This document shows positions 1 to 33,290 of a DNA stretch of 64,000 bases, piece by piece (positions within the stretch are counted from its first letter, which is position 1; every line of letters begins with the position of its first letter). A program made the position numbers and the translations under genes. The notes beneath the pieces were generated by a model. It was not told the DNA's origin. It did no database searches and saw only the letters and a program-made list of their open reading frames with translations. The stretch covers positions 1 to 64,000 of IMG/VR virus record IMGVR_UViG_3300008259_003217. One strand, written 5' to 3'. This DNA is from a virus.

Positions 1-19
1 TTTTAACAAAATCAACATT
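1..19 (-). CDS. possible start of the next operon gene (partial)
   Basis: On the minus strand an ATG at 19-17 overlaps the stop of the preceding glycosyltransferase gene in a TAATG arrangement and stays open for six codons (MLILLK) to the window edge. The same kind of stop/start overlap links other genes of this operon, and a hydrophobic start fits a glycosyltransferase Rossmann strand. Nothing more can be said from six codons. Confidence 0.3.
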
Positions 20-2916: not shown

Positions 2917-2920
2917 ATCA

Positions 2921-4167: not shown

Positions 4168-4170
4168 ATC

Positions 4171-5685
4171 TTAAGATGTTAATATTATTTTTGTTTTTAT
4201 TTTTTCCCAATTATTTTTAATGTGGGGTAATAAATTATTTAAGTAATCAATTTTTAATTTTGATAAATTCTCTGGATCCCCATTTCTAGTTTTTGACTCA
4301 TAATGATAAGCGACACACTCACCACATAAATAATTTTTAAGACCGGAGGAGATTAGGTCAATGTTTAAGTGTACATCCTCAAAACATGATATATAGTTTT
4401 CATTAAAATACCCAACCTTCTCAAATAAATTTTTACGAATCATTAATAAACCACCAGTATTTCCAATAACTTCAGTTGTTCGGTTGTGATAGTTATAATA
4501 ATGTTTTAAATTTAAATGACTAACACTAACGTGACCGTTATTTCTGCCTAACCCAATAAATATCCCATCGTGTTGTACCGTATTGTCCTCAAAATGTAAC
4601 CTACACCCAACGGATCCAGTCCTAACTTGAGTGTTAAAAATGTTTAACATTCCACTTATAACGTCGTTTAATATTTTTATATCGTTATTTGAGAATAGTA
4701 AAAATTCGTATGTACTATCAATATAATTTCTAACAACCTCATTATTTATTTTAGCGAAATTATAATAATCAAATTCAATTAATGTTATGTTGTCATGGTT
4801 AGATATAAAATTTTTTATATTATTTTTTTCATCGTCGGTTGATCCTGTGTCAGCTATAAAAATATCAAAGATTTTGGTATCACAGTTATCAATGTACGAA
4901 GTTATACAATCAAATAATAAATTAAGGTTACTTTTTGTTGGTATAATTATAGCTACTTTACCAAACTTATTAAATTTTTTTCTTTTTATTTCCGGGGTGT
5001 GTACATTTTTTGGTTTTAAGTCCAGAGGTAATTTGTCACCCCATTTTTCCACAAACTTAACCCGAGAATCAAAAAATTCTTGGTTTGGCTTTCCTAAAGA
5101 TTTGTGAGTTATTTCAAACGAAGATGTTACACCTATTTTAATATCGTCAAGGTAATTTGGGATACAAAAACCGTGATCATAAAAATGAAACACACCCAGG
5201 CTTTCATCAAATTTATGTTTAATTTTTGTTTTGTCAAATGAAATAAACAATCCGTCAATGGTTACCACCGGTATTAAAAAGTCAAATTTTGGTGAGTATC
5301 TACTTAAAAATTTTTTACCGTCTTCTGGGTGGTGGTACACTTGACCTACCATTGTTTGTGATAATCTTTCCCAGTAAACACCAGACTCTGGAAAATAACA
5401 TGAACCAGCTTTACCAATTATACCATAATCTTGGTTAGTATTGAAGTCGTTTAATAAATTTTTACCCCACCCAGACTCAAGTTTTATGTCATTATGACAA
5501 CAAACTACTATATCATATATTGATTCGGTAATTCCAGAATTATATACATTAGCTAATGAATGTTCATTATTATTTTCATACTCCAATATTTGAGGATTAG
5601 GAACACCGACAGTTTGTGACAAATGTTGTCTAAATTTGTTATTGTATTCTGAGTCTTTATGTGTTGAGTAAATAATAGTAATCAT
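4171..5685 (-). CDS. two-domain glycosyltransferase (tandem GT2-like domains)
   Basis: A 504-residue protein with two GT-A domains. Residues 1 to about 225 begin MITIIYSTHKDSEYNNKF and carry DIVVCCHNDIKLESGWG as the D-rich donor site and GVFHFYDHGFC near the catalytic end. From about residue 243, VAIIIPTKSNLNLLFDCI opens a classical GT2 domain with ADTGSTDDE, LLFSNNDIKIL (NND donor site), IGNTGGLLMIRK and ISCFEDVHLNIDL (ED catalytic pair), a rhamnosyltransferase-like pattern. Two fused transferases can add alternating or successive sugars. Encoded in the middle of the sugar operon, two bases from the next gene. Confidence 0.85.
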   Translation of the reverse strand: MITIIYSTHKDSEYNNKFRQHLSQTVGVPNPQILEYENNNEHSLANVYNSGITESIYDIVVCCHNDIKLESGWGKNLLNDFNTNQDYGIIGKAGSCYFPESGVYWERLSQTMVGQVYHHPEDGKKFLSRYSPKFDFLIPVVTIDGLFISFDKTKIKHKFDESLGVFHFYDHGFCIPNYLDDIKIGVTSSFEITHKSLGKPNQEFFDSRVKFVEKWGDKLPLDLKPKNVHTPEIKRKKFNKFGKVAIIIPTKSNLNLLFDCITSYIDNCDTKIFDIFIADTGSTDDEKNNIKNFISNHDNITLIEFDYYNFAKINNEVVRNYIDSTYEFLLFSNNDIKILNDVISGMLNIFNTQVRTGSVGCRLHFEDNTVQHDGIFIGLGRNNGHVSVSHLNLKHYYNYHNRTTEVIGNTGGLLMIRKNLFEKVGYFNENYISCFEDVHLNIDLISSGLKNYLCGECVAYHYESKTRNGDPENLSKLKIDYLNNLLPHIKNNWEKIKTKIILTS

Positions 5686-5686
5686 T

Positions 5687-6388
5687 TTAATCTTGTATAA
5701 TACAATTATCGTTATACGTATAGAATTCCTCTATTTTTCTATCACGTACTACTTTATTTGAGTCCCCTCTTTTAATTTTCTCTTTAAATTCTGGTAAACT
5801 TCTTGCCCATATGTGTTTTAACCATATTGACTCACTAGTGTGTGGCCCAATGGGTGAATTTACCTCTCTACCTAATTCGTCTATAAATCTACCATTTATT
5901 GATGGACAATGTGGGTCTGAAAAATATTTAATAGTTTTTGGGTCTATAAAACTTTTAATATGATCACTATTGTGGTAATATGTATATTCACTTATTGGTT
6001 TTCTATCCATATAGTATGGTTCTGGTTTGCCATATAATCTCCAGTAAATCCCTAACCCACTAAATTTACCGAAATTATTTGTTAAGTTTCTAATATCCTC
6101 TTTTATGTTCATGGTGCTTGACACATAAAATTCATCAGTATCAAAAAACCCAATGTAGTCAAAATTTTTATTATTCAAACAACAGTCCTTATAAGCTTTA
6201 TTTTGAGCACCAAATTTTTCATTATCCCATAGAATAACATCAACATCCTCGTCGTTAGACTTGATCGGAATATAACTATTGTTGTCATATACGAAAAATC
6301 TATCAACACCTAGTTTTCGATAGTAAGATAACCATTCATCCAAATAGTCATTCTCATCTTTAATTATTAAACAAATACCTATTTTCAT
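5687..6388 (-). CDS. GT92/Glyco_tranf_2_4-like glycosyltransferase
   Basis: The N-terminus MKIGICLIIKDENDYLDEWL followed by GVDRFFVYDNNS and YIGFFDTDEFYV is the standard signature of the Glyco_tranf_2_4/GT92 group, with DTDEF as the metal/donor site. WRLYGKP and SIWLKHIWARS-type segments downstream also fit. Length 233 is typical. The start overlaps the stop of the upstream methyltransferase gene by ATGA. It probably transfers a hexose to a glycan intermediate; exact sugar unknown. Confidence 0.85.
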   Translation of the reverse strand: MKIGICLIIKDENDYLDEWLSYYRKLGVDRFFVYDNNSYIPIKSNDEDVDVILWDNEKFGAQNKAYKDCCLNNKNFDYIGFFDTDEFYVSSTMNIKEDIRNLTNNFGKFSGLGIYWRLYGKPEPYYMDRKPISEYTYYHNSDHIKSFIDPKTIKYFSDPHCPSINGRFIDELGREVNSPIGPHTSESIWLKHIWARSLPEFKEKIKRGDSNKVVRDRKIEEFYTYNDNCIIQD

Positions 6389-6948
6389 TTCTTATAAATT
6401 AACCAAGAGCTATCATCATATTGTTTATCTGGAAGACCTAACATTTCCTCCACCGCTAATTTAACACCCTTAATGTGGGGGTTTCGATTACAAAAATCAA
6501 TGTCTGGATAATAATCGTGACCAGACATTATTTTTTTAACAAATGGTAACCAATGGATAATATCATTTTTAACACATTCATATTTATGACAAGCGTCAAT
6601 ATATACCATATCACACTCAAAACCAAAACTAGTTGATAAACCTTTTATTTTTGTGATGTTATTAACCAAATTCATTCTAAGATCAAATTGATGTTCGATT
6701 TCATTATAATTCGAAAAACTACATGAATCTAATCTATCAAACCCACCTTCCCAGGAATCGATACATATTATTTTTCCATTAGGGAACGCTTCCGCGATAA
6801 TTAAACTACTTTCACCCATATATGACCCAAGTTCAACAATAGTCGGAGAGTCTCCAATTATTTCTCTAGCGTCATCACACATTTTTTTAAGTGCTAAGTC
6901 TGACCCAGACCCAACCATTCTCATTTCTTGTTTTAATTTATTATCCAT
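6385..6948 (-). CDS. class I SAM-dependent methyltransferase
   Basis: Contains motif I as TIVELGSYMGESSLIIAEAF, then KIICIDSWEGG (acidic ribose-binding residue) and CDMVYIDACHKYECVKNDI (the IDxxH-type strand), followed by MSGHDYYPD, which lines the active site in the Methyltransf_24 class. At 187 residues it is a minimal catalytic domain. It is the second methyltransferase of the operon and differs clearly from the one at 2921. Likely sugar O-methylation, inferred from neighbours. Confidence 0.8.
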   Translation of the reverse strand: MDNKLKQEMRMVGSGSDLALKKMCDDAREIIGDSPTIVELGSYMGESSLIIAEAFPNGKIICIDSWEGGFDRLDSCSFSNYNEIEHQFDLRMNLVNNITKIKGLSTSFGFECDMVYIDACHKYECVKNDIIHWLPFVKKIMSGHDYYPDIDFCNRNPHIKGVKLAVEEMLGLPDKQYDDSSWLIYKK

Positions 6949-6960
6949 AATATTAATTTT

Positions 6961-7557
6961 TTAAATTCCAGTACTACCAAAACCTTTATCAGATCTATCT
7001 TTGTCTTCTACATTTTTAACCTTTTTTAATGTAATCCATTTACCACAAACAACCGGTGATAAGACACCCTGAGCTATTTTTTGACCCTTACTAATATCAA
7101 TCAATTCTTGTGTCGTGTTAAAGATAATCACTTTAATTTCACCAGTATATCCTTGGTCAACAGTTCCAGGTGAGTTTAACACCATTAACCCTTGATTAAG
7201 AGCTAATCCACTTTTTGATCTGATTTGTATTTCATACCCATCTGGAATGTCAATATGTAATCCGGTCGGTACTAATGTCCTACTGAATGGTTCTATACGT
7301 ACATTTTCGGTTGAGTGTAAATCAAACCCGGAGTCTGTTGGGTACACGTATTTTGGGTCAACTGATTCGTCCGAGGATACACTATAATGTAATAATAGCT
7401 TGTTATTTGATTTTGACATCTCTTCTTCAAGTTCCCTTATATCAAACCCATGTCTATCAATAACATCATTAACCACTAGGTTTTCAATCTCGTCACTAAA
7501 TAATTTTTGTAACTCGTCAATTTCTTTTTTTAGATCGTCTAAATTATTATTGTCCAT
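6961..7557 (-). CDS. dut: dUTP pyrophosphatase with N-terminal coiled-coil extension
   Basis: All five trimeric dUTPase motifs are readable: motif 1 DSGFDLHST (residues 75-83), motif 2 IRSKSGLAL (112-120), motif 3 GTVDQGYTGEIKVIIFN (131-147), motif 4 KGQKIAQGVL (157-166) and motif 5 DKGFGSTG (190-197). The enzyme hydrolyses dUTP to dUMP and pyrophosphate, keeping uracil out of phage DNA and feeding dTMP synthesis. Unusual is a 50-residue, highly charged N-terminal extension (DDLKKEIDELQKLFSDEIEN) predicted to be helical or coiled coil, absent from minimal dUTPases. It is co-oriented and directly adjacent to the exonuclease gene. Confidence 0.95.
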   Translation of the reverse strand: MDNNNLDDLKKEIDELQKLFSDEIENLVVNDVIDRHGFDIRELEEEMSKSNNKLLLHYSVSSDESVDPKYVYPTDSGFDLHSTENVRIEPFSRTLVPTGLHIDIPDGYEIQIRSKSGLALNQGLMVLNSPGTVDQGYTGEIKVIIFNTTQELIDISKGQKIAQGVLSPVVCGKWITLKKVKNVEDKDRSDKGFGSTGI

Positions 7558-8277
7558 TTATACTAATTCTTTTAATTTTTTAATGGTGTCAACCAATACT
7601 ACAACATCCCTTTCACAATATTCTGAAATTTCTTTTAACATGTTTCTTTCCCAGTAACATTCATGTACTTTATCACCTGTAACCTCACCACCTTTTGGTG
7701 TCGGGATGTCCAATGACGTACACATAAGATCTAATGATCCTATAGCTGTATAAGCTCCGTATTGCCAAATTTCACGAGTGTCTAGTGCTTTAACTTCCCA
7801 CGGTTTTGTATCAAATGAAGGTAATATTGATGGTGGATTTAAACCATTAATTATCATTCTTTTAGCCATCATCGGTATGTCAAAATTTTTAAGGTTGTGA
7901 CCACAAAGGTAGAAGTCTAACTTACCACACCTGTCTAACAATTTTTGGACATCGAGTAATAACTGTTTTTCGTCATCGTTTGAAAACGTTTGTTGTTTTA
8001 TTTCACCCTTATCGGTAACAAAAGCCATGGAGACACAAACAATCTTAGCAAATTCAGGTACCAAAGCTGTCCTGGTTGAAAACACAATATTTTTACGTTG
8101 AATTTCGTTTTCACCCTTCACCGAATCTTCTGGAAACCTTTTTAAAAACCAATCAAAATATTTATCAAATTGACTGGCTAATCTTGGGTTTGATTCTAAA
8201 CAAGAATCATAATCCCTGGTTATTCCAACAGTCTCTATGTCTAGGAATAAAATTTTTGTAATTGGTATAGTTATCAT
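7558..8277 (-). CDS. DEDDy-type 3'-5' exonuclease (PolB-exo-like)
   Basis: A free-standing exonuclease domain related to the proofreading domain of family B polymerases (DNA_pol_B_exo2 type). Exo I is ILFLDIETVG (DxE), Exo II is CGHNLKNFDIPMMAKR (N-x-x-x-FD), Exo III is YCERDVVVL (YxxxD, the DEDDy class). The family degrades DNA or RNA 3' ends in a two-metal reaction. In T4-like phages such genes complement the polymerase or process DNA during recombination. It directly abuts the dut start codon, so the two DNA-metabolism genes form a pair inside an otherwise sugar-related operon. Confidence 0.88.
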   Translation of the reverse strand: MITIPITKILFLDIETVGITRDYDSCLESNPRLASQFDKYFDWFLKRFPEDSVKGENEIQRKNIVFSTRTALVPEFAKIVCVSMAFVTDKGEIKQQTFSNDDEKQLLLDVQKLLDRCGKLDFYLCGHNLKNFDIPMMAKRMIINGLNPPSILPSFDTKPWEVKALDTREIWQYGAYTAIGSLDLMCTSLDIPTPKGGEVTGDKVHECYWERNMLKEISEYCERDVVVLVDTIKKLKELV

Positions 8278-8279
8278 TA

Positions 8280-9494
8280 TTATTTAATTAAGGATTTGTA
8301 AAATTCAGCTCTCTCTTTTGTTACGTTATTTAAATCATAACGGTCTTTAACAGTTTCATATAACCTTTCACCCAAGTCAGTGATCATGTTAGGGTTATTA
8401 ACTAGTTTTTTAATATACTTAGACCAGTCACCGTGGTTTCTATGTTCGTCCACCAATAGAGCGTTACCATCGGTAAATTCACCATTTTTTAAAGCGTGTT
8501 TCAAGTCAATCGTATATGGACCAACATTTGAAGCTATAATAGCTTTTTTATAAAACCCAGCTTCAATCACCTTTAATTGTGATTTCATTCTATTGAATAC
8601 GTGGTTTTTAATTGGTGCTAGTGAAATGTCAAATTTGGAATAGTTTCTAGCGTAGTTATTTACCGGCCTGGTCCAAACCCTAACGTAGTTTTCTTTTTCT
8701 ACACCAGGGTAATCATTTTCTGTAAAGGTATTTAAATAGTCTTTGTATTTTGGTGTGATGATTTTATAATTGTCAGTAAATATTTCCTCATATTTAACCC
8801 ATACAGTCTCTTCTGGTTTTATTGGTCTTTGTGTTTTTTGACCTGTTTGTTTGTTAATTTCGGTTACTTGACCTCTAGTGTCAAAACCACAAACAAAAAA
8901 TTGTACTTTATCGTGTACTGATGATAGTTTTGGTACCATCCCATCAAGTAGTTTTAAATCGTGTAAATGTGATGAACCACCTAACCAACCAATTCGGATC
9001 TTGTCTGAAGGTTGTGTTACCTCAGTAAATTGTGGATCTTTAGGGTCAATAGCGTTAGGGAAAACCACTACGTTTTTATTAATTTTTTTTATTTCATCAG
9101 CAAAAATTTCAGTCGTGGTTATCACATAAGACGAAGCTTTTAAATTATTTTTAATTTTCTCGTGAACTTTGTTTTGTAATATTAACTGATGAATCGGGTG
9201 TTCTGGAGTTGGTAACCAATAATCGTCGATGTCAGCCACAACTATAATCCCAAGAGATTTTAAATTCTCAATTATACTAACACAGTTGTCATAATCTTGT
9301 CCGATATTCCTATGGAAGTGTACAATCTGATATTTCTTCCAGTAATTTTGATCATTGATTCTCGGATTATAATCAATATCTACATGAAAGTCATTAGGGT
9401 ACATATTTTGTAGTTTAACATGTGGGTCAACACTTCTAAATTTTCCAACACCAGATTGGTCTGATGGTAATACTAATACATTTATTTTTTCCAT
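8280..9494 (-). CDS. GT4-like glycosyltransferase, first gene of the sugar operon
   Basis: A 404-residue GT-B enzyme. The N-terminal half has VLVLPSDQSGVGKFRS, YQIVHFHRNIG and VVADIDDYW. The second Rossmann domain starts at KIRIGWLGGSSHLHDL, and the donor-binding motif is KVIEAGFYKKAIIASNVG, the E-containing loop of GT4. I chose the ATG at 9494 (MEKINVLVL); an alternative ATG at 9557 adds 21 hydrophobic residues that overlap the terminator of the upstream operon and looks non-coding. It is the promoter-proximal gene of the operon, and its leader lies just downstream of the hairpin at 9560-9583. Donor sugar unknown. Confidence 0.85.
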   Translation of the reverse strand: MEKINVLVLPSDQSGVGKFRSVDPHVKLQNMYPNDFHVDIDYNPRINDQNYWKKYQIVHFHRNIGQDYDNCVSIIENLKSLGIIVVADIDDYWLPTPEHPIHQLILQNKVHEKIKNNLKASSYVITTTEIFADEIKKINKNVVVFPNAIDPKDPQFTEVTQPSDKIRIGWLGGSSHLHDLKLLDGMVPKLSSVHDKVQFFVCGFDTRGQVTEINKQTGQKTQRPIKPEETVWVKYEEIFTDNYKIITPKYKDYLNTFTENDYPGVEKENYVRVWTRPVNNYARNYSKFDISLAPIKNHVFNRMKSQLKVIEAGFYKKAIIASNVGPYTIDLKHALKNGEFTDGNALLVDEHRNHGDWSKYIKKLVNNPNMITDLGERLYETVKDRYDLNNVTKERAEFYKSLIK

Positions 9495-9550
9495 AATATT
9501 TTTTGTTCTTGTAAAAGTATACCAAGAAAAAACGAAAATATCAATGGTTA

Positions 9551-9583
9551 AAAACAAAAAACCCCAACCATTCGGTTGAGGTT
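9551..9583 (-). terminator. rho-independent terminator of the 12363-9608 operon
   Basis: Read on the minus strand, a 10-bp stem (AACCTCAACC pairing with GGTTGGGGTT, one G-U pair) closes a 4-nt loop and is followed by a T-rich tract (TTTTGTTTT). It lies 25 nt beyond the stop of the last gene of the preceding operon and separates it from the glycosyltransferase operon. Confidence 0.85.
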
Positions 9584-14749: not shown

Positions 14750-16390
14750 ATGGCAATTATAATTCAAGGTATAGGACCTGGGTCAACACTAAGAGATTCG
14801 AACACTAACCTATCGAACGGAAGCTGTAGTACCGTAGCTGGTGGTCAATTAAATACGTCACAATTAACTGAAACTATCGTCGGTGGTGGTTGTAAAAATA
14901 CCGCTGGACCAGTATGGTCAACTATCGGTGGTGGAGCGTGTAACCGAATATCAACAACAAAAGCTTCTGGGTCAGCACCTTGTAGTACAATTGTTGGTGG
15001 TTGGAGAAACGTAATTAATGTGAACAGTGAGAGATCAACTATTGGTGGTGGAGCGTGTAACAATATCAGTGGTATTGAAGGTTTCATTGGTGGTGGTATC
15101 TGTAACAATATTATTACTGGTGTTGACAACACTATTGCTGGTGGTTCAAGTAACTCTATACGAGAATCAAATGTGACAATAGGTGGTGGTCAACTTAATA
15201 GGGCTTTTGCCATTAACTCTGTAATCCTTGGGGGTAACTGTAACCTAACACAATCAATAAGTAGTGTTATTGGTGGTGGTGATAATAACACAATACTACC
15301 AAGTGTTGATGGAAAAGGAAATATAAACGTTATTGGTGGTGGTGCAAGAAACACCATTGACCCGTTTGGTATATTTAGTTACTCAACAATTCTAGGTGGT
15401 CAGTGTAATTTCACTAGTGGTGCTAACACAGTAATTGGTGGTGGAACAAATAACACGGCTTTACAAATAAACTCAATCGTTGGTGGTGGTTCTTTTAACT
15501 TAGCTAATGCTGCTTCACCAGCAATTGGTGGTGGGGTTCGTAATACAACACTTGGTCAAATATCTTCGATTGGTGGTGGTAGTGGGAACACAATAACAAC
15601 GACAGCTTGTTCATCAACAATCGGTGGTGGATTTGGTAATACAATAACTGGACAAAGATCAGCAATCTTAGGTAGTTCATCAAATAAAATTACAGGTAAT
15701 GATTCATTCATAATCGCTACAAGTTCAAGTGTTAGTGCTAACCGAAGTGTAGCTTTGGGTGGATCTAACGTTAACGTAACTGTTGATGATTCGGTTTACG
15801 TACCAAAACTTAACATTAGAAGTTTTCCAAACACTTCACCAATATACGGATTAGCGGTTGACGCTAACGGATTTGTTGTACCATCAACTAATCCAGGTGT
15901 TAACTTTGTGGTTGACGCTTTCTTATCGGAAGGTTCACCAGATCCAGTAAATAGTGTGTCTTCTGGTTTAGGTAATGATTTATCAAACTCATTGGTTGCG
16001 GTAACACAAACACCGACATTACAATATAATGATTACATCGGGTCATATGATAACGCTACTGGTATTTGGACATGTCCACAAAGTGGTAGATGGAACATGA
16101 GTTTTTATGTTCATTTAACTGGTCCAGACGCGGTTAATGGGTGGTATTCATTAGCTGAGGGTATGATTTACGCTGGTATTGTTGATGTTGTTACTGGTGA
16201 GGTTTACGCTTCAAGTACATTCTACACGTCAAACATTCAAAAATACGCTGATATTAACGGTGGACAATGGGGTGTGTTACTAAACGCTGGTGACCAATTA
16301 TGTGTTAGAGTACTTAATACAACAGGATTAAACTACACAACTGTAGCACCTGATGATTATGTTAGGTTCTCAACACAAAGAGTTGGATAA
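14750..16390 (+). CDS. IGGGxxN-repeat fibre protein with C1q-like head
   Basis: 546 residues. Residues 20-340 consist of about twenty repeats of the form S-x-I-x-GGG-x-x-N-x-I (for example STIGGGACNNIS, FIGGGICNNI, TVIGGGTNNTA), spaced about 13-18 residues, which would stack as a beta-roll or beta-helix shaft. Cys often precedes the Asn. After a connector (residues 340-385, VYVPKLNIRSFPN), the last 150 residues read like a C1q/TNF jelly roll (NDYIGSYDNATGIWTCPQSG, RWNMSFYVHLTG, LLNAGDQLCVRVLN). Shaft plus C1q-like head is a classic receptor-binding architecture. It is followed by the protease-like gene and a paralogous repeat protein. Confidence 0.85.
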   Translation: MAIIIQGIGPGSTLRDSNTNLSNGSCSTVAGGQLNTSQLTETIVGGGCKNTAGPVWSTIGGGACNRISTTKASGSAPCSTIVGGWRNVINVNSERSTIGGGACNNISGIEGFIGGGICNNIITGVDNTIAGGSSNSIRESNVTIGGGQLNRAFAINSVILGGNCNLTQSISSVIGGGDNNTILPSVDGKGNINVIGGGARNTIDPFGIFSYSTILGGQCNFTSGANTVIGGGTNNTALQINSIVGGGSFNLANAASPAIGGGVRNTTLGQISSIGGGSGNTITTTACSSTIGGGFGNTITGQRSAILGSSSNKITGNDSFIIATSSSVSANRSVALGGSNVNVTVDDSVYVPKLNIRSFPNTSPIYGLAVDANGFVVPSTNPGVNFVVDAFLSEGSPDPVNSVSSGLGNDLSNSLVAVTQTPTLQYNDYIGSYDNATGIWTCPQSGRWNMSFYVHLTGPDAVNGWYSLAEGMIYAGIVDVVTGEVYASSTFYTSNIQKYADINGGQWGVLLNAGDQLCVRVLNTTGLNYTTVAPDDYVRFSTQRVG

Positions 16391-16416: not shown

Positions 16417-17862
16417 ATGGTCACAGACTCAATTAAGGAAAAATTAAAGTCTATATATAAATCAAACATTGATAAAGTTGGTGTTGGGTTCGGATTGAAA
16501 ATTAAAGATGGTCAATTAACAAATGAAAAATCATTTACGTTAATTGTTAAAGAAAAGAAACCTTTGAGTTCTTTATCTAGTGGTGAAGTATTCCCAAAAG
16601 AAATGACAGTTGATGGAGTTACTTACCCCACAGATGTTGTAGCTTTTTCAGAGGCGGAACCATACGCATTTTATTGTGCCGGACCAAACCCGGACCTAAG
16701 TCCAACTTGTTGGAACTGGACGATTACCCCACCAGCAAATAGGAACTATTTAAGGCCGTTACAAGGTGGTATTTCTTTAGGTCCTTCAAATATAGCTGGT
16801 TCTGGAACATTAGGTTTGATAGCTGTGGATGGAGAAACAGGTTGTTATGTTGGTTTAACTAATAACCACGTTGTAATAAACGACCCATTCTATACTGGTG
16901 ATAGACAATTAAATGGTGGTATTTCAAACGTAACTTACCCAAGTGGCGTGGGTTCCGCGATAAACGCTTATCAACCTGGGTTATCGGATCCATTTGTTGG
17001 TACCAACTTTGACAGGTCATTTGGGATTGTACTTAGGTATGTTCCTGTATTTAGTAATGTTTTTCCTGTTGATGGTATAAATATTTCAGATGCTGCAATT
17101 GTCAGTATCGATCAATTTGACGCACAAGGAAATCAAACTATAAGTACTTCAGGTCCGAACGCTTCTTGGAGACAGTTGGGTTTATCCTCAATAACAGCTC
17201 CTCAACCATTCGCTACCAACTTGGAAATAAATTCATTAACTCCAGCTGATTCGATTATAAGTGCTGGTAGAACTTCCGGAGGTAAAGAAGGTGTTTGTTC
17301 GCTACGAATACATCTACTGAGTGTGATTTACGAATACACCCAATCAATGCAGGGGTTACAAACCCCGATTATATATCAAGATTTGATGAGTTTTGCTAGA
17401 TATTCACCAACTGGTGAGTTATGTGCTTTTCCAGGTTTTAAAGGTGATTCTGGTTCAGCTATGTTCGCTCAATTTGGTGGTACTTGGAAAGTAATTGGTT
17501 TAATACAGGCTGGTAGTCCAAATAAACAACCACTATTAAATCCAAATACAACTTGGTATGTTAATAACACGATAAACCCAATCAATTATCCACCATTTGT
17601 TGGACCTATAGTTGGTTTTGGTCCAGCTTTAATTGGTAACGCTTCTTGGCCATATATGTTTGGTTGTAAAATAACTAACATAGCTTCACAATTAAATATT
17701 CAAGCTTGGGACGGGACACCTAAGTGTCATATAGATCCGAACCCACATACTGTAACAGCTTGTGGTAAAAGTTTTAACCCAACTGTAGTTTGTAGTGGTG
17801 ATACGTACTGGCAAGTAGGATTAACTAATGATCCTTCATTATTAAATCCATGTACCCCATAA
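16417..17862 (+). CDS. trypsin-like (S1-fold) serine protease
   Basis: 481 residues with a chymotrypsin-fold catalytic triad: His151 in VGLTNNHVVIND, a candidate Asp225 in NISDAAIVSID, and Ser345 in FPGFKGDSGSAMF (the GDSG oxyanion motif). The N-terminal 80 residues (DKVGVGFGLKIKDGQ, SFTLIVKEKKP, TYPTDVVAFSEA) match the prodomain-like leader of a group of bacterial trypsin-like proteins. There is no signal peptide, so if it acts outside the cell it is presumably carried on the virion. It lies between two IGGG-repeat fibre genes with gaps of 26 and 23 bases, suggesting co-expression; it may process the fibres, release them from receptors, or cut host surface proteins. Catalysis itself is inferred from motifs. 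Confidence 0.8.
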   Translation: MVTDSIKEKLKSIYKSNIDKVGVGFGLKIKDGQLTNEKSFTLIVKEKKPLSSLSSGEVFPKEMTVDGVTYPTDVVAFSEAEPYAFYCAGPNPDLSPTCWNWTITPPANRNYLRPLQGGISLGPSNIAGSGTLGLIAVDGETGCYVGLTNNHVVINDPFYTGDRQLNGGISNVTYPSGVGSAINAYQPGLSDPFVGTNFDRSFGIVLRYVPVFSNVFPVDGINISDAAIVSIDQFDAQGNQTISTSGPNASWRQLGLSSITAPQPFATNLEINSLTPADSIISAGRTSGGKEGVCSLRIHLLSVIYEYTQSMQGLQTPIIYQDLMSFARYSPTGELCAFPGFKGDSGSAMFAQFGGTWKVIGLIQAGSPNKQPLLNPNTTWYVNNTINPINYPPFVGPIVGFGPALIGNASWPYMFGCKITNIASQLNIQAWDGTPKCHIDPNPHTVTACGKSFNPTVVCSGDTYWQVGLTNDPSLLNPCTP

Positions 17863-17885: not shown

Positions 17886-19994
17886 ATGACAGAAATAATT
17901 ATAACAGATGTGAATGGTGGGAGCACCACAACAGTGAGAGACAGATTAGGTAATATTAGTCTTGGTTCTTACTCAACAATATCTGGAGGTGGTAAAAATA
18001 CATCAAACGGTGTTAGATCAACCGTATTGGGTGGTTATGGCAATACATTGGTTGGTAATGACTCGGTAGCTGGTGGTTATGATAATTTTTCACAGTCCGA
18101 CTTTACAGTAATTTCTGGTGGTAAATCAAATAGAATATCTGAAAATAGTTCTAGTTACTCGGTTATAATTGGTGGATCTAATAATATTATAACTGGTTCG
18201 ACTAGTGTGATAAACAATGGGTTGAATAATAACCTATTTGGTAACTACTCGACAATCTCTAACGGTTTAACAAATACAGTAAATTCGAACTATTCAACGG
18301 TAACAAATGGTATCGGTAATATAGTTACTGGTGATCATAGTTTAGTAGGTGGTGGGTCGTCAAATGTTATCTCAAAATCATCGTCAGTAATACTGAATGG
18401 ACAGGGTAACACCGTAAACTCACAAAACGGATCAATTTTAAATGGTGTGTCGAATACTGTTAACGGATCACTTTCGTCAATCGGGAATGGATTTAGAAAT
18501 CAAATTTCCGGAGAACAATCAGTTATTAATAATGGTATTTGTAATATAATCACATCAAGTAATTCATCAATAAACACCGGTATAAATAACTCAATATCTT
18601 CTGATCTATCAGTTATTGGTGGTGGGTATTTAAATGAAATTAAATCCGAATCATCATTCATTGGTGGTGGATCATTAAATATGATTGAGGGTGGGTCTTC
18701 GGTAATCGCTGGTGGTATGGACAATAAAACTGTTTTAGAATATTCATCCGTACTTGGTGGTAGATTTAATACAGTCGAAGGTGTTGGATCAACAGTTGGT
18801 GGTGGAATATACAACACTGTTTTAGGTTCCACGTCATCGTCTGTTGGATACGGTAACTTTGTATCTGGAGATACTTCACATGTTTTGTCAAATAATTCCT
18901 ACCTAGTTGGTAATAATTCTGTGATTCTTGGTGGTAGTAACATTAGTGGTTTTTCGGATAATACAGTATATGTTGATCAATTAAATTTATTTAACAATAG
19001 TGACCCAACATCTGTAACATATACAACTATACCAGTACCATTATCGGGTATTGACCCTATTGGGGTTGATGGTGATGGGTTTGTTAGGGTTTTTGAATTC
19101 CCAAAAACAACTTACATTACTAGTGGGTCATATGATAACACCACTGGTACTTTAAATTTAAGATATGATAACAATCAAGATATAATTGTCACTGGTTTCA
19201 CTGACGCTGATTGTTGTATAACAGGTGGGACATATTCTGGTAGAACCGGGGATATAATTTTAAATCCCGACGGACCAACACCAATCCCAATAACTGGAAT
19301 TACCAAAGTTGGTGGTGAAAGTGTGGTATTTGGTGACTACTCATCCGTTGGTGCAGGTAAAGATAATACAATATATTCCAATAACTCATTTATCGGTGGG
19401 GGTAGATTTAATTCAACTTCTGGGGACACATCAACAATTTTGGGTGGATCGAGGAATAGTGTAGTTGGAGCTGGGTCATCTGTTTTTGGTGGTGCAAGTA
19501 ACGACATAACTGGTGAAACATCTCATGTACTTGGTGGGCTAGGGAATACAATCGTTGGGGATGGATCAAATACTGTCGGGGGTAGTGGTAATCTAGTGTT
19601 AACTAATGATGTAGTATTAATTAACACAAGTAGTTTGACCGCAACAACCCCAAACACTGTGTACCTTGGTGAAACACAATTTACTGGACCAGTAAATTAT
19701 AAAACAACAATGGTTGACGCGTTAGCGGATCCGAATTTAACGGATAACGATAGTATTGTATTTTATAACACTTCAGGACCTGGTGGTACCATTTATCTAC
19801 CAACAGCTAGAGATGGTAAAGAGGTTATTCTAATTAGAACTAATAACACTAACAGTGCTTTTGTTGTTGGTAGTGGAGGAGCTAAAATAAATGGGGTTGG
19901 TATAGCTCAAAACTTACCAACAGCTGTATATACTAAAACAACATTTATTAGTAATGGTACTGACTGGTACGCTAACGACTCAGCACCATTCTAA
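17886..19994 (+). CDS. IGGGxxN-repeat fibre protein (second paralogue)
   Basis: 702 residues. Residues 25-340 and about 475-590 are repeats such as STISGGGKNTS, SVIGGGYLNEI, SFIGGGSLNMI and STILGGSRNSV, here mostly with Ser/Asn in place of the Cys of its paralogue. The two repeat blocks are separated by a non-repeat insert with TYITSGSYDNTTGTLNLRYD and ITGGTYSGRTGDIIL, elements also found in the fibre proteins at 23653 and 33957. The C-terminus (GGTIYLPTARDGKEVILIR) is a short beta domain seen at the ends of tail-fibre proteins. The very high Ser/Thr/Asn content makes it a plausible acceptor for the glycosyltransferases immediately downstream. Confidence 0.82.
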   Translation: MTEIIITDVNGGSTTTVRDRLGNISLGSYSTISGGGKNTSNGVRSTVLGGYGNTLVGNDSVAGGYDNFSQSDFTVISGGKSNRISENSSSYSVIIGGSNNIITGSTSVINNGLNNNLFGNYSTISNGLTNTVNSNYSTVTNGIGNIVTGDHSLVGGGSSNVISKSSSVILNGQGNTVNSQNGSILNGVSNTVNGSLSSIGNGFRNQISGEQSVINNGICNIITSSNSSINTGINNSISSDLSVIGGGYLNEIKSESSFIGGGSLNMIEGGSSVIAGGMDNKTVLEYSSVLGGRFNTVEGVGSTVGGGIYNTVLGSTSSSVGYGNFVSGDTSHVLSNNSYLVGNNSVILGGSNISGFSDNTVYVDQLNLFNNSDPTSVTYTTIPVPLSGIDPIGVDGDGFVRVFEFPKTTYITSGSYDNTTGTLNLRYDNNQDIIVTGFTDADCCITGGTYSGRTGDIILNPDGPTPIPITGITKVGGESVVFGDYSSVGAGKDNTIYSNNSFIGGGRFNSTSGDTSTILGGSRNSVVGAGSSVFGGASNDITGETSHVLGGLGNTIVGDGSNTVGGSGNLVLTNDVVLINTSSLTATTPNTVYLGETQFTGPVNYKTTMVDALADPNLTDNDSIVFYNTSGPGGTIYLPTARDGKEVILIRTNNTNSAFVVGSGGAKINGVGIAQNLPTAVYTKTTFISNGTDWYANDSAPF

Positions 19995-20086: not shown

Positions 20087-20830
20087 ATGTTTGTATCAGT
20101 ATGTAATAAGGACTATCTAATTGGTTTTGAGGTAATGTTAAAATCATTAGTGGAAAACAATCCCAGGGTTGTTGATGAAAATATACCATTTATGGTGATC
20201 AGTAATGATTTAACTTCGGATGATCTGATAACCTCTAGGAAAATACATAATAATATTTCATTAAAAAATTATGACCAGTCAAAGTACGGTAATATTGACG
20301 AATTAAAATCAGACCAGACTGGGTTTGGTGATTACACAAAGTATGAGATATTTTCAATTAGTGATGTTGATAAAATAATATTTTTAGATTCAGATATTGT
20401 TGTTCTTGGTAATATCGATTACCTGATTGATTATTCACATTCGTTCGGGTGTGTCCGGGAATTATATATTGACCAATATAATACGGGTGTTATGGTTATC
20501 GACAAAAAATATTTGTCAGAAAAAATAACAAATGATTTAATTAATCTAACATTAATATATGGTATTACTGAACACTTTGATCAGGATATTATTAATTTGT
20601 ACTTTAGTGACGTAATTAGTACTATTCCAATCGAGTATAATTACTTAAAGACGTACTCTAAACAAATTTTCATAAATACAGGTCTACCAAAATATATTAA
20701 AATATTACATTTTATAGCTAAAAAACCTTGGCAAAATAAACCGTTAGTCTCACTTGAGGAAGGTACATTGTGGCAAGAAAGATATTGGTTTGATTATTAT
20801 TCTAAAATTTTAAAACTTAAAAATGGTTAA
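20087..20830 (+). CDS. GT8-like glycosyltransferase
   Basis: 247 residues with the GT8 pattern: MFVSVCNKDYLIGFEVMLKS at the start, KIIFLDSDIVVLGNIDYLID as the DxD donor/metal site (DSDIVVLG), QYNTGVMVIDKK (the N-G-V acceptor loop), HFDQDIINLYF, and ILHFIAKKPWQNKP (the H-x-x-x-x-K-P-W product-site motif). GT8 enzymes are retaining and use UDP-Glc, UDP-Gal or similar donors. It overlaps the following heptosyltransferase-like gene by eight bases, so the two are coupled. Confidence 0.88.
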   Translation: MFVSVCNKDYLIGFEVMLKSLVENNPRVVDENIPFMVISNDLTSDDLITSRKIHNNISLKNYDQSKYGNIDELKSDQTGFGDYTKYEIFSISDVDKIIFLDSDIVVLGNIDYLIDYSHSFGCVRELYIDQYNTGVMVIDKKYLSEKITNDLINLTLIYGITEHFDQDIINLYFSDVISTIPIEYNYLKTYSKQIFINTGLPKYIKILHFIAKKPWQNKPLVSLEEGTLWQERYWFDYYSKILKLKNG

Positions 20831-21734
20831 ACGACATTACGAAGAAGAGGAATTATTAAAGTACATACAGTTAGATCCAAATATTACAAATTTTAATGGT
20901 CGTACGTTACTACTTCATTTTGACTCATTTTGTTTGGGTGATACAATATGTTTTTCATCTTTCATTGATCCGTTTATTGAATACCACAAACCCAAAAAGA
21001 TTTACATATCAACCTTTTTTCCACATTTATTCCAATCTAAAGATGTTGATAGGTGTGAATTTATAAAAGCTAATAATCCGGTTTATATTGAGGTTGATAG
21101 ATTGTTGGACATTGGTTATGATAAAGGTAATTTAAAACATACCCTAAATGGTATGATGTACGCTACCAAAGATACCATGATGTTACCACAAGATACTAAA
21201 CCCGGAAAATGTCCGGTTATCCCATATAAAATTAACAAAAAAAATAATAAAATTTCAATCGCACCGGAATCATTAAAGAAAATAGCTAGGTGGGATTATG
21301 ATAATGGGTGGCAGGAAATTGTTAACAGATTGACCTCATCTGGGTATGAAGTGACAAATGTATCATATGAGAATACACTAAATCTTGAAGGTGTGACAAA
21401 TTGTAACGGTTTCGATGATATTACGGTGTCCTTAAACCACATACTCGAATCTAGGATTTTTATTGGGTTGTCCTCTGGTTTATCTTGGTTAGCTTGGGCG
21501 TATGACATACCGGTGGTTATGATATCTAACTTTACAAAAAAACAAAATGAATTTGATTGTTTTCGTGTGTTAAACCCAAATGTGTGTAATGGATGTTTTA
21601 ATATGTTTATGAACATTAAAACACATTGTCCGGTATTTTTGGGGACCGGTAGGGAAAATGAATGTCATTTAAAAATAACCCCAGATATGGTCTGGGAAAA
21701 AATAGAATTAGCTTTGTCGTTTACAAATAAATAA
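20823..21734 (+). CDS. TibC/BAHT-like protein O-heptosyltransferase homologue
   Basis: 303 residues. The C-terminal third reads FIGLSSGLSWLAWAYDIPVV, then ISNFTKKQNEFDCFRVLNPN, a four-cysteine set CNGC...HC...EC (C255, C258, C269, C281) and a terminal LKITPDMVW. This order (GL-SGLSWLAWA, pVV-IS-F, E-F, R-lNP, CxxC, CP, EC, IT) is the signature I associate with bacterial autotransporter heptosyltransferases (TibC/AAH, the BAHT family), in which four cysteines hold an iron atom and the enzyme O-heptosylates serines in beta-helix adhesin repeats. The N-terminal half is a divergent GT-B domain (LLLHFDSFCLGDTICFSSFI). It is shorter than TibC (about 400 residues). Immediate neighbours are a GT8 and a GT9-like gene, and repetitive beta-roll fibres lie upstream. 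Confidence 0.8.
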   Translation: MVKRHYEEEELLKYIQLDPNITNFNGRTLLLHFDSFCLGDTICFSSFIDPFIEYHKPKKIYISTFFPHLFQSKDVDRCEFIKANNPVYIEVDRLLDIGYDKGNLKHTLNGMMYATKDTMMLPQDTKPGKCPVIPYKINKKNNKISIAPESLKKIARWDYDNGWQEIVNRLTSSGYEVTNVSYENTLNLEGVTNCNGFDDITVSLNHILESRIFIGLSSGLSWLAWAYDIPVVMISNFTKKQNEFDCFRVLNPNVCNGCFNMFMNIKTHCPVFLGTGRENECHLKITPDMVWEKIELALSFTNK

Positions 21735-21753: not shown

Positions 21754-22638
21754 ATGGAAAAAAAATATAGTTTATTTCACATTGAGGGTGGTTTGGGTAA
21801 GCACGTTCTAGCTACAGCGGTAGCCCAATGTATAAAAAATAATCACCCGGACAGAGAATTAATAATTGTTTGTGCTTACCCAGAAATATTTCTAAACTTA
21901 GATTTTGTTGATCGAGTATATAGACTTGGTATGACACCATATTTCTACGACGATTTTATTAATAATAAAGATACTATGGTATTTAAACATGAACCATATT
22001 TTACCGATGATCACATACACAAAAGATTACATTTATTGTTAAATTGGTGTAAACTACATAATTTAAAATATAATAACGAACAACCTGTTTTAAAATTCAA
22101 TATTAGACAATTACAAATAGCACATGGTAAATGGTTAAGAGAAAAACCGGTAATGGTTATTCAAACAAATGGTGGTCCGTTACAAGAACAACCACACACA
22201 TATTCATGGACTAGGGATATTCCATATGAAGTAGCTCAAAAAATTGTTGAGGTATTTTCCGAGAAATATCATATAATCCAAGTTTGTCGACATGAACACA
22301 ACTCTTTACCCAATGTTGAGGTTGTACATGAACCATTATCAAATATGGAATTATTTTCAATGTTATTAGCTTCAGAAAAAAGATTATTAATTGATTCATC
22401 ACTACAACACGCTTCGGCAGCTTTAGGTCTCCAGTCAACAGTTCTTTGGGTTGGGACATCTCCGGTTGTGTTTGGGTATGGGTTACACAAAAATATAGTG
22501 GCTACATTACCAAATACTGTTAAATTACCAGATAGTTATTTATTTGACTACGACTTCAATGGTACAACACATGAATGTCCTATGTTCGATAATAATATTT
22601 TTAATTTGGATGAGATTGTCGAGTCCTTACAAAATTAG
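21754..22638 (+). CDS. GT9-like (ADP-heptosyltransferase-fold) glycosyltransferase
   Basis: 294 residues. FHIEGGLGKHVLATAVAQCI is the opening glycine loop of GT9-like GT-B enzymes. PVMVIQTNGGP opens the C-terminal Rossmann domain, and LLIDSSLQHASAALGLQSTV corresponds to the D-S-x-x-x-H-x-A-A-A-L-x donor site of heptosyltransferase-fold enzymes. VLWVGTSPVVFGY follows it. Third gene of the block 20087-22638, 19 bases after the BAHT-like gene. A heptose or hexose donor is plausible. Confidence 0.75.
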   Translation: MEKKYSLFHIEGGLGKHVLATAVAQCIKNNHPDRELIIVCAYPEIFLNLDFVDRVYRLGMTPYFYDDFINNKDTMVFKHEPYFTDDHIHKRLHLLLNWCKLHNLKYNNEQPVLKFNIRQLQIAHGKWLREKPVMVIQTNGGPLQEQPHTYSWTRDIPYEVAQKIVEVFSEKYHIIQVCRHEHNSLPNVEVVHEPLSNMELFSMLLASEKRLLIDSSLQHASAALGLQSTVLWVGTSPVVFGYGLHKNIVATLPNTVKLPDSYLFDYDFNGTTHECPMFDNNIFNLDEIVESLQN

Positions 22639-22687: not shown

Positions 22688-23644
22688 ATGAGTCAAAGTA
22701 TAACCATAGATAGTATAAATTTTGACGGTGAATTAGCTACCGTTATTTTTAAACCGGATAATGATAATGTTGTCATTAATCTAGGTCAAGTTACGTTACC
22801 GTTTATTTTTTTCCCGGACTTATTAGTACCACCAAGGGAAGTGTACGGTGTCTATACGATACTAGTTGAGAATGGGGATTGTCCGAATATATTAAATGTT
22901 CCAAGACCTACCCCCACACCAACACCAACTGTGACTCCGACAAGGACACAAACACCTACACCAACACCAACTGTAACACCAACACCAACATTTGATCCTT
23001 GTAAGGTACCAACCCCAACACCAACGAACACACCAACGAATACCGTTACCCCAACTGTAACACCAACACCAACTGAAACTTGTACAAGTCCTTGTGGATG
23101 TCCACATCCAAGTAATACACCAACCCCAACAAAAACACCAACACCCACACCAACATATCAAATATGTAAATCAACACCTACACCTACACCAACAGTTACT
23201 CCAACAAACACAGTTACTCCAACAAATACTATGACACCTACCCCTACCAATACTACCACACCAACGAATACACCAACACCAACACCTAGTAGTTCACCGG
23301 AACCAGACTTACCAGGAATTTATTTTGGTAAATTTAGTGGTTCGTCAATAACTAGTGGGGACTCTTCACTTCTTACTTTCGAGTATACAAATGACCCAAC
23401 AGATGATTATGTTACATTTACGAGTAGTGTTACACCATACTGGGGATACATTTTAATACCGATATCGTTACCACAACCAACAGGATTTAGAAATAGTACG
23501 ATTGGTTGTAATGGATTTAACATACCAACAAACAATATAGGTACAATAATTATAGTAGATGGAAATGGATTCCAGATAAATTACAATGTCTACAGAACCT
23601 TTAATGACTTCTTGGGTACTGTTGATTGTTGGTTATGTAGTTAA
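22688..23644 (+). CDS. mucin-like Thr/Pro-repeat virion protein
   Basis: 318 residues. Residues 1-70 are a compact beta domain ([20 protein letters not shown]). Residues 72-205 are almost pure [12 protein letters not shown]-type sequence interrupted by short Cys-containing islands ([27 protein letters not shown]). Residues 210-318 form a second domain ([33 protein letters not shown]). Thr-Pro alternation gives an extended stiff linker and is the classical acceptor context for mucin-type O-glycosylation. It lies directly after the glycosyltransferase block, 49 bases from the GT9-like gene. Confidence 0.8.
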
Positions 23645-28270: not shown

Positions 28271-29518
28271 ATGAAGATATTCATTCAAATCGCTTCATAT
28301 AGGGATCCACAATTAGTCCCGACAATAGAAGACGCTATTAGTAAATCAAAACATCCTAAAAATTTAGTATTTGGTATCGCTCGTCAATACCACCCAGAAG
28401 ATAAATTTGATGATCTTTCATCTTATGAAGAAGATAAAAGATTTAGAGTTCTAAATATTCCACACGAGGAATCTAAAGGTGTTTGTTGGGCTCGTAATCA
28501 AGTACAACAACTGTACGGTGGTGAGGAATATACACTACAGATTGATTCACACATGAGATTTGATCAAGACTGGGATCAAACATTAATAGATATGTTATCT
28601 GATCTACAGGATAAGGGATATAAAAAACCCCTATTAACCGGATATGTATCATCTTTCGATCCAGAAAACGATCCAGATGGTCGGGTTGTTGACCCTTGGA
28701 GGATGGTTTTTGATCGGTTCACCCCAGAGGGTTGTGTTTTCTTTTTACCGGAGACAATTCCTGGGTGGAAAGATTTAACCGAACCGATAACATCTAGATT
28801 TTACTCAGCTCATTTTTGTTTTACTCTTGGTCAATTTAGTGTTGAGGTACAACACGACCCGGAATATTACTTTCATGGTGAGGAAATTTCTATAGCTGTT
28901 AGAGCTTATACACACGGTTATGATTTGTTTCATCCCCATAAAACTGTTATTTGGCACGAATACACCAGAAAAGGTAGAACAAAACAATGGGACGATGATA
29001 AAGTTTGGTACTTAAAAAATGAATCTTCACACAAAAAAAACAGGGAGGTATTAGGTGTGGATGGTGAAGTATATAACGGTGACCTTGGTAAATATGGTTT
29101 TGGTACCGAAAGAACAATTAAGGATTATGAAAAATATTCCGGTGTTTTATTCTCTAAAAGAGCTGTACAAAAATACACCATAGATAAGAAATACCCACCA
29201 AATCCATACGACTTTGAAACCGAAGAGGATTGGGTTGAGAGTTTTTCATCAATTTTTAAACACTGTATTGATGTATCCTTTTTACAGGTACCGGAAAACG
29301 ATTACGAATATTGGGTGGTTGCTTTTCACGATAAAACAGATGAAACAATCTATAGACAAGACGCTAGTACAGATGAGATAAAAATGATGATGACTGATCC
29401 AGACGGATATTGTAAAATATGGAGACAATTTAACACTAAAGAAAAACCGGCTTATTGGGTTGTTTGGCCATACTCAAAATCAAAAGGTTGGTGTGATCGT
29501 ATAACAGGAAATTTATAA
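28271..29518 (+). CDS. GT60-like polypeptide N-acetylglucosaminyltransferase homologue
   Basis: 415 residues. MKIFIQIASYRDPQLVPTIE, then HPKNLVFGIARQYHP, GVCWARNQVQQLYGGEEYTL and QIDSHMRFDQDWDQTLIDML reproduce in order the motifs of the GlcNAc domain family (Skp1 hydroxyproline GlcNAc-transferase, GT60), including the DSH metal site. Downstream SAHFCFTLGQF, YYFHGEEISIAVRAYTHGYD (GEE-x-x-x-A-R) and VIWHEY complete the GT-A core. The characterised eukaryotic member modifies hydroxyproline in Skp1, and the family is related to mucin-type GalNAc-transferases. The C-terminal 120 residues are an extra domain (YWVVAFHDKTDETI). Given the Thr/Pro-repeat virion proteins on both sides, peptide glycosylation is a reasonable hypothesis, not shown here. 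Confidence 0.88.
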   Translation: MKIFIQIASYRDPQLVPTIEDAISKSKHPKNLVFGIARQYHPEDKFDDLSSYEEDKRFRVLNIPHEESKGVCWARNQVQQLYGGEEYTLQIDSHMRFDQDWDQTLIDMLSDLQDKGYKKPLLTGYVSSFDPENDPDGRVVDPWRMVFDRFTPEGCVFFLPETIPGWKDLTEPITSRFYSAHFCFTLGQFSVEVQHDPEYYFHGEEISIAVRAYTHGYDLFHPHKTVIWHEYTRKGRTKQWDDDKVWYLKNESSHKKNREVLGVDGEVYNGDLGKYGFGTERTIKDYEKYSGVLFSKRAVQKYTIDKKYPPNPYDFETEEDWVESFSSIFKHCIDVSFLQVPENDYEYWVVAFHDKTDETIYRQDASTDEIKMMMTDPDGYCKIWRQFNTKEKPAYWVVWPYSKSKGWCDRITGNL

Positions 29519-32072: not shown

Positions 32073-33290
32073 ATGGAGTTTTTCATTAAAAAAAATGCCA
32101 CACTACCGGTTTTAAAATTACAAGTAGTGAAGGATGGTCGTAGTGATTACAATAAGATGATGGATCTTATTGAGGAATCGTCCATTTTCTTCTCTATGAT
32201 TGATACTGAAAATGGGATACCAAAGTTAGTAACTAGACCAGCTGGGTTTGTAAATAAAATAATGTTAGACCCAAACGCTAGTCCAGAATATTATGTGTAT
32301 TACCAGTTCACAAATAAAGACACAAATCGTGTTGGTAGGTATGAAGGACAATTTTTATTAAAAACAAATGAGGGTAATTTAATATTACCAATCAGGGAAA
32401 AATTATATATAACAGTTCAGGATAGTTTTATCTCTGACGATTTGATGTACGACTCATGTTATGTTTCGGAATTTCCTTGTTGTGTACCGTCTAACCCGGT
32501 GATAACAACGACAACAACTCAATTTTGTTTTATAAACCCCGAAACACCAACGGAATTGACATTGGTGGTTACGGTATTACCCGGGTCGGTAAACATAACG
32601 TATAATCTATTTTCTAATAAACCCGTAATTATCGATACCACATTAAATTTTACACACAATTTAGGTGTATTTAGTGGTTTACCAATAACAATAACTACCG
32701 GTGTTACCATATCACAGGGTAGTAATTTTGGTTCTACAGTAATTAACCTGGGTGAGGATTACTCTAATTTAACTCGTGTGGATCAATTTACAGATGTGAC
32801 TACGGACCCGTCAAATTTAAATTGGCAAATTGAGGAAATATTTCCAATATCACCTACACCAACAAATACACCTACCGTAACACCAACTGTAACGCCAACA
32901 AATACACCAACTGTAACGCCAACAAATACACCAACTGTAACACCAACTGTAACACCAACTGTAACACCAACTGTAACACCAACAAATACCATAACACCAA
33001 CTGTAACACCAACTGTAACACCAACAAATACTATAACACCAACTGTAACACCAACAAATACACCTACCGTAACACCAACAAATACACCTACCGTAACACC
33101 AACAAATACTATAACACCAACTGTAACACCAACTGTAACACCTACCGTAACACCAACAAATACTATAACACCAACCCCAACTGTAACCCCAACATCCACA
33201 TATTATATTATCGATCCAATTATAGTTGGCAGTGATACGTATCTAAATGTGGGTTTAAACAATTACTTAAAATATAATAACCCAATATAA
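32073..33290 (+). CDS. mucin-like VTPTNTPT-repeat virion protein
   Basis: 405 residues. Residues 1-140 form a folded N-terminal domain ([40 protein letters not shown]), which resembles a virion attachment module. Residues 150-258 ([20 protein letters not shown]) are a beta domain. Residues 260-373 are over 100 residues of [12 protein letters not shown] repeats, and the end ([20 protein letters not shown]) is a short capping strand pair. The repeat is encoded by near-identical DNA (32852-33196), so its length should vary by recombination. It follows the HtrL-like glycosyltransferases, and its Thr density makes it a candidate acceptor. Confidence 0.8.
32852..33196 (+). repeat. tandem DNA repeat encoding VTPTNTPT units
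   Basis: Alternating units ACACCAACTGTA and ACACCAACAAATAC (roughly 12 and 18 nt higher-order mixture) repeat for about 345 nt with only scattered synonymous changes (CCTACCGTAA, ACTATAACACC). The near-identity at DNA level, beyond what protein repetition needs, suggests recent expansion. Confidence 0.9.

What the first reader, a model, noticed from the sequence alone, without database searches (positions are those of the whole stretch)
20823..21734. Phage homologue of TibC/BAHT iron-dependent adhesin heptosyltransferase
The order GL-SGLSWLAWA, VV-IS-F, EF, NP, CxxC, C and EC with cysteines C255, C258, C269 and C281 is the signature of the bacterial autotransporter heptosyltransferase family, which holds an iron atom and modifies serines of beta-helix adhesin repeats. 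Finding it in a phage directly beside beta-roll repeat fibres is unexpected. It is about 100 residues shorter than known members, so the N-terminal domain may differ.
Basis: partly seen in the sequence, partly recalled or inferred. Interest (0 to 1): 0.78.

Follow-up and report, generated by a model that had tools for sequence, protein, structure and literature searches.

The report
Phage relative of TibC-type protein glycosyltransferase
A freshwater tailed phage carries a trimmed-down relative of the iron-containing enzymes that coat bacterial adhesins with sugar, in a conserved gene set beside its repeat-built fibres, so phages of this group probably decorate their own fibres with sugars (and, in sister phages, sulphate).

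Summary
Window 20823-21734 (+) encodes a 303-aa protein whose only matches among solved structures, by sequence and best by fold, are TibC (phmmer 2e-16; Foldseek E 1e-19, TM about 0.8; the GT9 enzymes WaaC/WaaF trail at E 5e-8 or worse). All four iron-site cysteines (C255, C258, C269, C281), the catalytic-base Asp (D40 = TibC D110) and W222 (= W305) are invariant in 89 diverse relatives. It scores 114 bits against a TIGR04414 cut-off of 200. It is therefore a sister clade, not a member of the bacterial heptosyltransferase family, and ADP-heptose as donor is doubtful. Relatives are abundant in viral contigs and already annotated in some phage records. In 24 of 27 loci of this clade the order GT8 - this gene - GT9-like is fixed, usually right after fibres built of 15-residue S-T-I-G-G-G-x-x-N repeats. 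In 20 of 27 a sulfotransferase lies nearby. Two distant relatives keep fibre, sulfotransferase and this gene together in another order. Best reading: a fibre glycosylation cassette with TibC-type chemistry on a new substrate. Substrate and donor are inferred.

The parts
20823..21734 (+). TibC-like (GT-B, GT9-superfamily) glycosyltransferase, 303 aa, barrel-less and thumb-less form
   Evidence: TIGR04414 E 5.8e-33, 114 bits, cut-off 200; phmmer TibC 2e-16; AF2 model pLDDT 94.6; Foldseek best hits 4rap/4rb4 E 1e-19, TM about 0.8
20940..20942 (+). D40, aligned with TibC catalytic base Asp110
   Evidence: phmmer alignment; invariant in 89/89; role of D110 from PMC4358343
21276..21287 (+). K152-K153-I154-A155: K152 invariant in this clade, while A155 stands where TibC has K230
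   Evidence: K at this column in 38/38 bacterial and 38/38 other phage rows, A/S in 13/13 of this clade
21465..21500 (+). GLSSGLSWLAWA motif; S217 = TibC P300 position (Ser294 in AAH), W222 = TibC W305
21585..21665 (+). Putative iron-finger: C255, C258, C269, C281
   Evidence: aligned with TibC C339/342/358/370; invariant in 89/89
20087..20830 (+). GT8 family glycosyltransferase; its end overlaps the start of the TibC-like gene by 8 bases
   Evidence: PF01501 E 1.1e-21; present next to the TibC-like gene in 24 of 27 loci, and in L110 in rearranged order
21754..22638 (+). Third glycosyltransferase, remote GT9/TibC-like C-lobe
   Evidence: hhalign of its family with the TibC-like family: probability 95%, E 2.4e-8; present in 24 of 27 loci
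17886..19994 (+). Repeat fibre (702 aa) directly upstream; 15-residue beta-roll repeats, candidate acceptor
   Evidence: PF21300 (beta roll) E 7.5e-6; 22 repeat motifs in its 100% identical copy in L003; 20 by a stricter pattern against 0.5 in shuffles
14750..16390 (+). Second repeat fibre (546 aa), candidate acceptor
   Evidence: 19 repeat motifs in its nearly complete copy in L003; 16 by a stricter pattern against 0.3 in shuffles

Best explanation
The gene encodes a soluble GT-B protein glycosyltransferase derived from the same stock as TibC/AAH. It keeps the fold, the catalytic Asp (D40), the sugar-site Trp (W222) and a four-cysteine metal finger, but has shed the N-terminal barrel and thumb that build the TibC dodecamer and has a rebuilt donor site (K152 in place of K230; no R286). 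It most likely starts an O-linked glycan on the Ser/Thr of the 15-residue S-T-I-G-G-G-x-x-N beta-roll repeats of the neighbouring phage fibres. The adjacent GT8 and GT9-like enzymes then extend or cap it, and in sister phages a PAPS sulfotransferase sulphates it. Shown by sequence and structure prediction: homology, retained and lost residues, fold, and the conserved gene set. Inferred: metal binding, fibre as acceptor, the order of the enzymes, and a donor other than ADP-heptose.
For: TibC is the best match by profile, sequence and fold. Invariant G39, D40, W163, SGL, W222, E243 and four Cys in 89 relatives. GT8 - TibC-like - GT9-like order in 24 of 27 loci with the fibre upstream; the GTs stay at 62-89% identity among non-identical loci while the fibres fall to about 30-50%. 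Repeat-fibre genes in the held region of 23 of 27 clade loci; by the stricter pattern in 22 of 29 clade loci against 6/65 other phage and 2/79 bacterial loci. Distant L110 and L111 (47-48% identity) keep a repeat fibre and a sulfotransferase beside it in different order, and L110 also a GT8, which speaks for functional rather than merely inherited linkage. Repeat consensus carries a Ser at one position in 68% of 737 repeats. The clade is one side of a branch with 100/100 support, on a long branch. Purifying selection on all three GTs.
Against: No direct evidence for acceptor, donor or metal. Three of four TibC donor-binding residues are gone, so activity itself is not proven. L017/L018/L022 have the cassette without a recognised repeat fibre, and L109 (truncated contig) shows neither fibre nor GT8. 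The window phage lacks the sulphate module altogether.
Confidence: 0.6

Rival explanations
1. It is a genuine heptosyltransferase: ADP-heptose from the host is transferred to serines of the phage fibre repeats exactly as TibC does to TibA.
For: Conserved D40 and W222, the full Cys site, and Ser at the position of AAH Ser294, which goes with relaxed ADP-heptose stereospecificity. Gram-negative hosts can supply ADP-heptose (general knowledge).
Against: K230, T226 and R286, the TibC donor-contact residues, are replaced (K230 site A/S in 13/13); K230A and R286A abolish or largely diminish TibC activity (PMC4358343). No match in the phage record to TIGR02199, SIS_2 or Epimerase models.
Confidence: 0.2
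2. The cassette modifies the host envelope (LPS or capsule) during infection, for example to exclude other phages; its place beside the fibres is only regional.
For: GT8 enzymes commonly build LPS (weak NCBIfam hit to LPS galactosyltransferase); viral GT9 genes are filed as LPS heptosyltransferases in metagenome surveys (PMC8066274; PMC10747093).
Against: The TibC lineage acts on protein; the LPS enzymes WaaC/WaaF match far worse. Linkage to repeat fibres survives gene rearrangement in L110/L111.
Confidence: 0.12
3. The enzymes sugar-coat phage DNA (hypermodified bases).
For: Phage glycosyltransferases often do so (cited in PMC12619734).
Against: Located in the fibre block, not seen with DNA-modification genes; no known DNA glycosyltransferase has the cysteine finger of this family (general knowledge); fold match is to a protein glycosyltransferase.
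Confidence: 0.04

Closest known systems
TibC / AAH bacterial autotransporter heptosyltransferases (BAHT, TIGR04414; PDB 4rap, 4rb4)
   Same: Fold, catalytic Asp, WLAW motif Trp, four-cysteine site, genetic partnership with a repeat-built beta-solenoid surface protein
   Different: No N-terminal barrel, no thumb, K230/T226/R286 lost, partner is a phage fibre with 15-residue repeats rather than a TIGR04415 autotransporter, two further GTs in the same cassette
Other phage TibC-like domains (e.g. A0A6J5SVC1 'Glycosyltransferase Aah/TibC', huge phage LR756501, Microcystis phage Mel-JY01 WWT39291)
   Same: Core domain with all four Cys and D40
   Different: Mostly C-terminal modules of 670-1450 aa multi-domain proteins fused to GT4 or methyltransferase domains, or stand-alone with an extra N-terminal region; keep K230 (38/38); mostly 25-38% identical
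LPS heptosyltransferases WaaC/WaaF (GT9)
   Same: GT-B fold
   Different: Lack the cysteine finger (general knowledge); TM about 0.5, 11% identity
Virion protein glycosylation in mycobacteriophages (Freeman et al. 2023, cited in PMC12619734)
   Same: Glycans on virion proteins of phages
   Different: Capsid and tail-tube C-termini rather than repeat fibres, according to the citing text

Membership tests
BAHT (TIGR04414) | Score above the curated cut-off of 200 bits | tested here: not met
   114.3 bits, E 5.8e-33
BAHT (TIGR04414) | TibC fold | tested here: met
   Model pLDDT 94.6; best PDB match TibC, E 1e-19, TM about 0.8
BAHT (TIGR04414) | Four iron-coordinating cysteines (TibC C339, 342, 358, 370) | tested here: met
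   C255, 258, 269, 281 aligned and invariant in 89/89
BAHT (TIGR04414) | Bound ferric ion | not testable with these tools
   Needs metal analysis
BAHT (TIGR04414) | Catalytic base D110 and W305 | tested here: met
   D40, W222 invariant
BAHT (TIGR04414) | Donor-binding residues T226, K230, R286 | tested here: not met
   L/I/T151, A/S155, S/A/V203 in the 13 rows of this clade; K230 38/38 and R286 34/38 in bacterial rows
BAHT (TIGR04414) | N-terminal beta-barrel (PF21129) | tested here: not met
   No Pfam hit; TIGR04414 match starts at profile position 79; only about 22 residues precede the core
BAHT (TIGR04414) | Beta-hairpin thumb with hydrophobic tip (F265/V266) | tested here: not met
   Insertion between the V180 region and N205 absent in alignment
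BAHT (TIGR04414) | Neighbouring substrate with strand-loop-strand repeats (TIGR04415) | tested here: not met
   No TIGR04415 hit in the window fibres or the L007 fibre; positive control L077, beside a bacterial BAHT, has 26 such repeats
BAHT (TIGR04414) | ADP-heptose donor and dodecamer assembly | not testable with these tools
   Needs enzymology and EM; phage record has no hit to three pathway-related models
GT9 LPS heptosyltransferase (PF01075) | Score above gathering cut-off | tested here: not met
   14.8 bits against 22

The most novel reading that the evidence does not exclude
A phage-specific clade of iron-finger protein glycosyltransferases has changed its sugar donor and works without the dodecamer scaffold. 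Together with GT8, GT9-like and, in sister phages, PAPS sulfotransferase genes it lays a dense glycan coat on solenoid tail fibres, a protein modification not found described for phages in the literature searched here.
Probability: 0.35. Interest if true: 0.8.

Novelty: new variant of a known kind. Interest (0 to 1): 0.58.

Why it matters
It makes a testable case that whole groups of environmental phages glycosylate, and perhaps sulphate, their own fibres. That would affect host range, adsorption and stability. It also suggests that part of the viral 'heptosyltransferase / LPS biosynthesis' auxiliary genes reported from metagenomes are virion-modifying protein glycosyltransferases. The barrel-less, thumb-less enzyme with a complete cysteine finger is a natural experiment on what the iron site is for when the known dodecamer interfaces are gone.

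Tried and rejected
AlphaFold with only five close relatives gave a useless model (pLDDT 57); the 86-row alignment fixed it. PHROGs has no family for the protein. ADP-heptose pathway-related models, sulfotransferase and APS kinase were not found in the window's own record. A chance reading of the motifs was rejected on the profile and fold statistics. GT_21754 had no significant solved relative by sequence and was placed only by profile-profile comparison. Literature searches for phage TibC homologues and phage fibre sulphation found nothing on point. Host could not be determined: the tail sheath is about 30% identical to a huge phage (LR756508) and to Microcystis phage Mel-JY01 and slightly less to T4-like sheaths, and no tRNA lies in the window.

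Full report
What is there. Window 20823-21734 (+) is an intact ATG-started gene for 303 residues in a 159,868-base virus record. It lies in a run of fibre genes of a contractile-tailed phage (tail-sheath and tail-tube matches). Its start overlaps the end of a GT8 gene (20087-20830) by 8 bases, and a further glycosyltransferase (21754-22638) follows 19 bases later. Directly upstream are two fibre genes (14750-16390, 17886-19994) made of beta-roll repeats.

Identity. The protein matches TIGR04414 (hepto_Aah_TibC) at E 5.8e-33 but at 114 bits against a curated cut-off of 200. In a sequence search of all PDB chains only TibC answers (2e-16). A model from an 86-row alignment is confident (pLDDT 94.6, pTM 0.91), and Foldseek ranks the TibC chains first (E 1e-16 to 1e-19, TM about 0.8), with the LPS heptosyltransferases WaaC/WaaF far behind (E 5e-8 and worse, TM about 0.5).

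Residues. Using the TibC paper (PMC4358343) as yardstick and the alignments: the four iron-site cysteines, the catalytic base (D40 = D110) and W222 (= W305) are present and invariant in 89 non-redundant relatives from this clade, other phages and bacteria. Position 217 is Ser, as in AAH at the stereoselectivity site. But the site of K230 is Ala/Ser in all 13 rows of this clade while it is Lys in 38/38 bacterial and 38/38 other phage rows; the clade instead has an invariant Lys three residues earlier (K152). The site of T226 is mostly Leu/Ile (Thr in two rows), and that of R286 is Ser/Ala, once Val (bacterial rows: Arg in 34/38). The thumb insertion is missing, and only about 22 residues stand where TibC has its N-terminal barrel.

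Relatives. Most viral ones outside this clade are C-terminal modules of 670-1450-residue proteins with GT4, methyltransferase or other domains. Public phage records already contain some: a BFVD entry is named Glycosyltransferase Aah/TibC, and in Microcystis phage Mel-JY01 the domain is hidden in a gene called methyltransferase FkbM. The window's clade is one side of a branch with 100/100 support on a long branch of 2.37 changes per column.

Gene set. In 24 of 27 clade loci (several are near-identical contigs) the order GT8 - TibC-like - GT9-like is kept; the exceptions are a truncated contig (L109) and the two most distant members (L110, L111). Among non-identical loci the GTs keep 62-89% identity while the upstream fibres fall to roughly 30-50%. 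Repeat fibres lie in the held region in 23 of 27; under a stricter pattern they appear in 22 of 29 clade loci against 6 of 65 other phage and 2 of 79 bacterial loci. In 20 of 27 a PF13469-type sulfotransferase lies close by, and in 14 an APS kinase. L110 has fibre - sulfotransferase - TibC-like - GT8, and L111 sulfotransferase - TibC-like - fibre, so the association survives rearrangement. The window's own phage lacks sulfotransferase and APS kinase.

Acceptor. 737 repeats from sixteen loci have a dominant 15-residue period and the consensus [Y/N]-S-T-I-[G/S]-G-G-x-x-N-T-[S/A]-x-G-x, with Ser at one position in 68%. They do not match the BAHT acceptor repeat TIGR04415; a bacterial BAHT locus fetched here (L077) does have such a neighbour with 26 repeats, which shows that the test works. 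That the phage repeats are the acceptor is inferred from linkage and from what TibC does, not shown.

Verdict. Its functional call (iron-dependent heptosyltransferase) is too specific: membership features were tested and several not met. 'Works like TibC on a phage fibre, probably with another donor, as one step of a multi-enzyme decoration' is the best-supported account; metal, donor and acceptor remain to be tested.

Noticed in passing
L007:7795-9981; L017:4417-5247 and 7792-8634; L110:4540-5388; L111:2-871: Sister phages carry a PAPS sulfotransferase, and many also an APS kinase, a CTP_transf_like nucleotidyltransferase and a 147-aa DUF2061-matching protein right after the GT cassette: a possible sulphation module for virion glycans.
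   Followed up: partly
28271-29518: PF11397 glycosyltransferase (GlcNAc; E 2.3e-68), a family whose best-known members are cytoplasmic protein GlcNAc-transferases of eukaryotes (general knowledge); conserved downstream of the cassette in several sister phages.
   Followed up: no
22688-23644 and 32073-33290: Proteins with long Pro-Thr (TPTPTP) mucin-like tracts in the fibre block; relatives in sister phages; candidate acceptors for other GTs of this region.
   Followed up: no
18-9557 (- strand): A block of sugar and surface genes: GT2, GT92-like, weak GT4, two Methyltransf_24 genes, a short DegT aminotransferase-like gene and a hexapeptide acyltransferase, suggesting the phage makes or modifies further glycans.
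   Followed up: partly
16417-17862: Protease-like protein (phrog_20754, E 7e-13) between the two repeat fibres, possibly for fibre maturation.
   Followed up: no
L026:4750-8430 (Microcystis phage Mel-JY01, WWT39291): 1226-aa protein annotated only as methyltransferase FkbM, but Pfam finds GT4, weak TibC_1st and GT9-type matches: apparently a GT4 - barrel - TibC-like fusion.
   Followed up: partly
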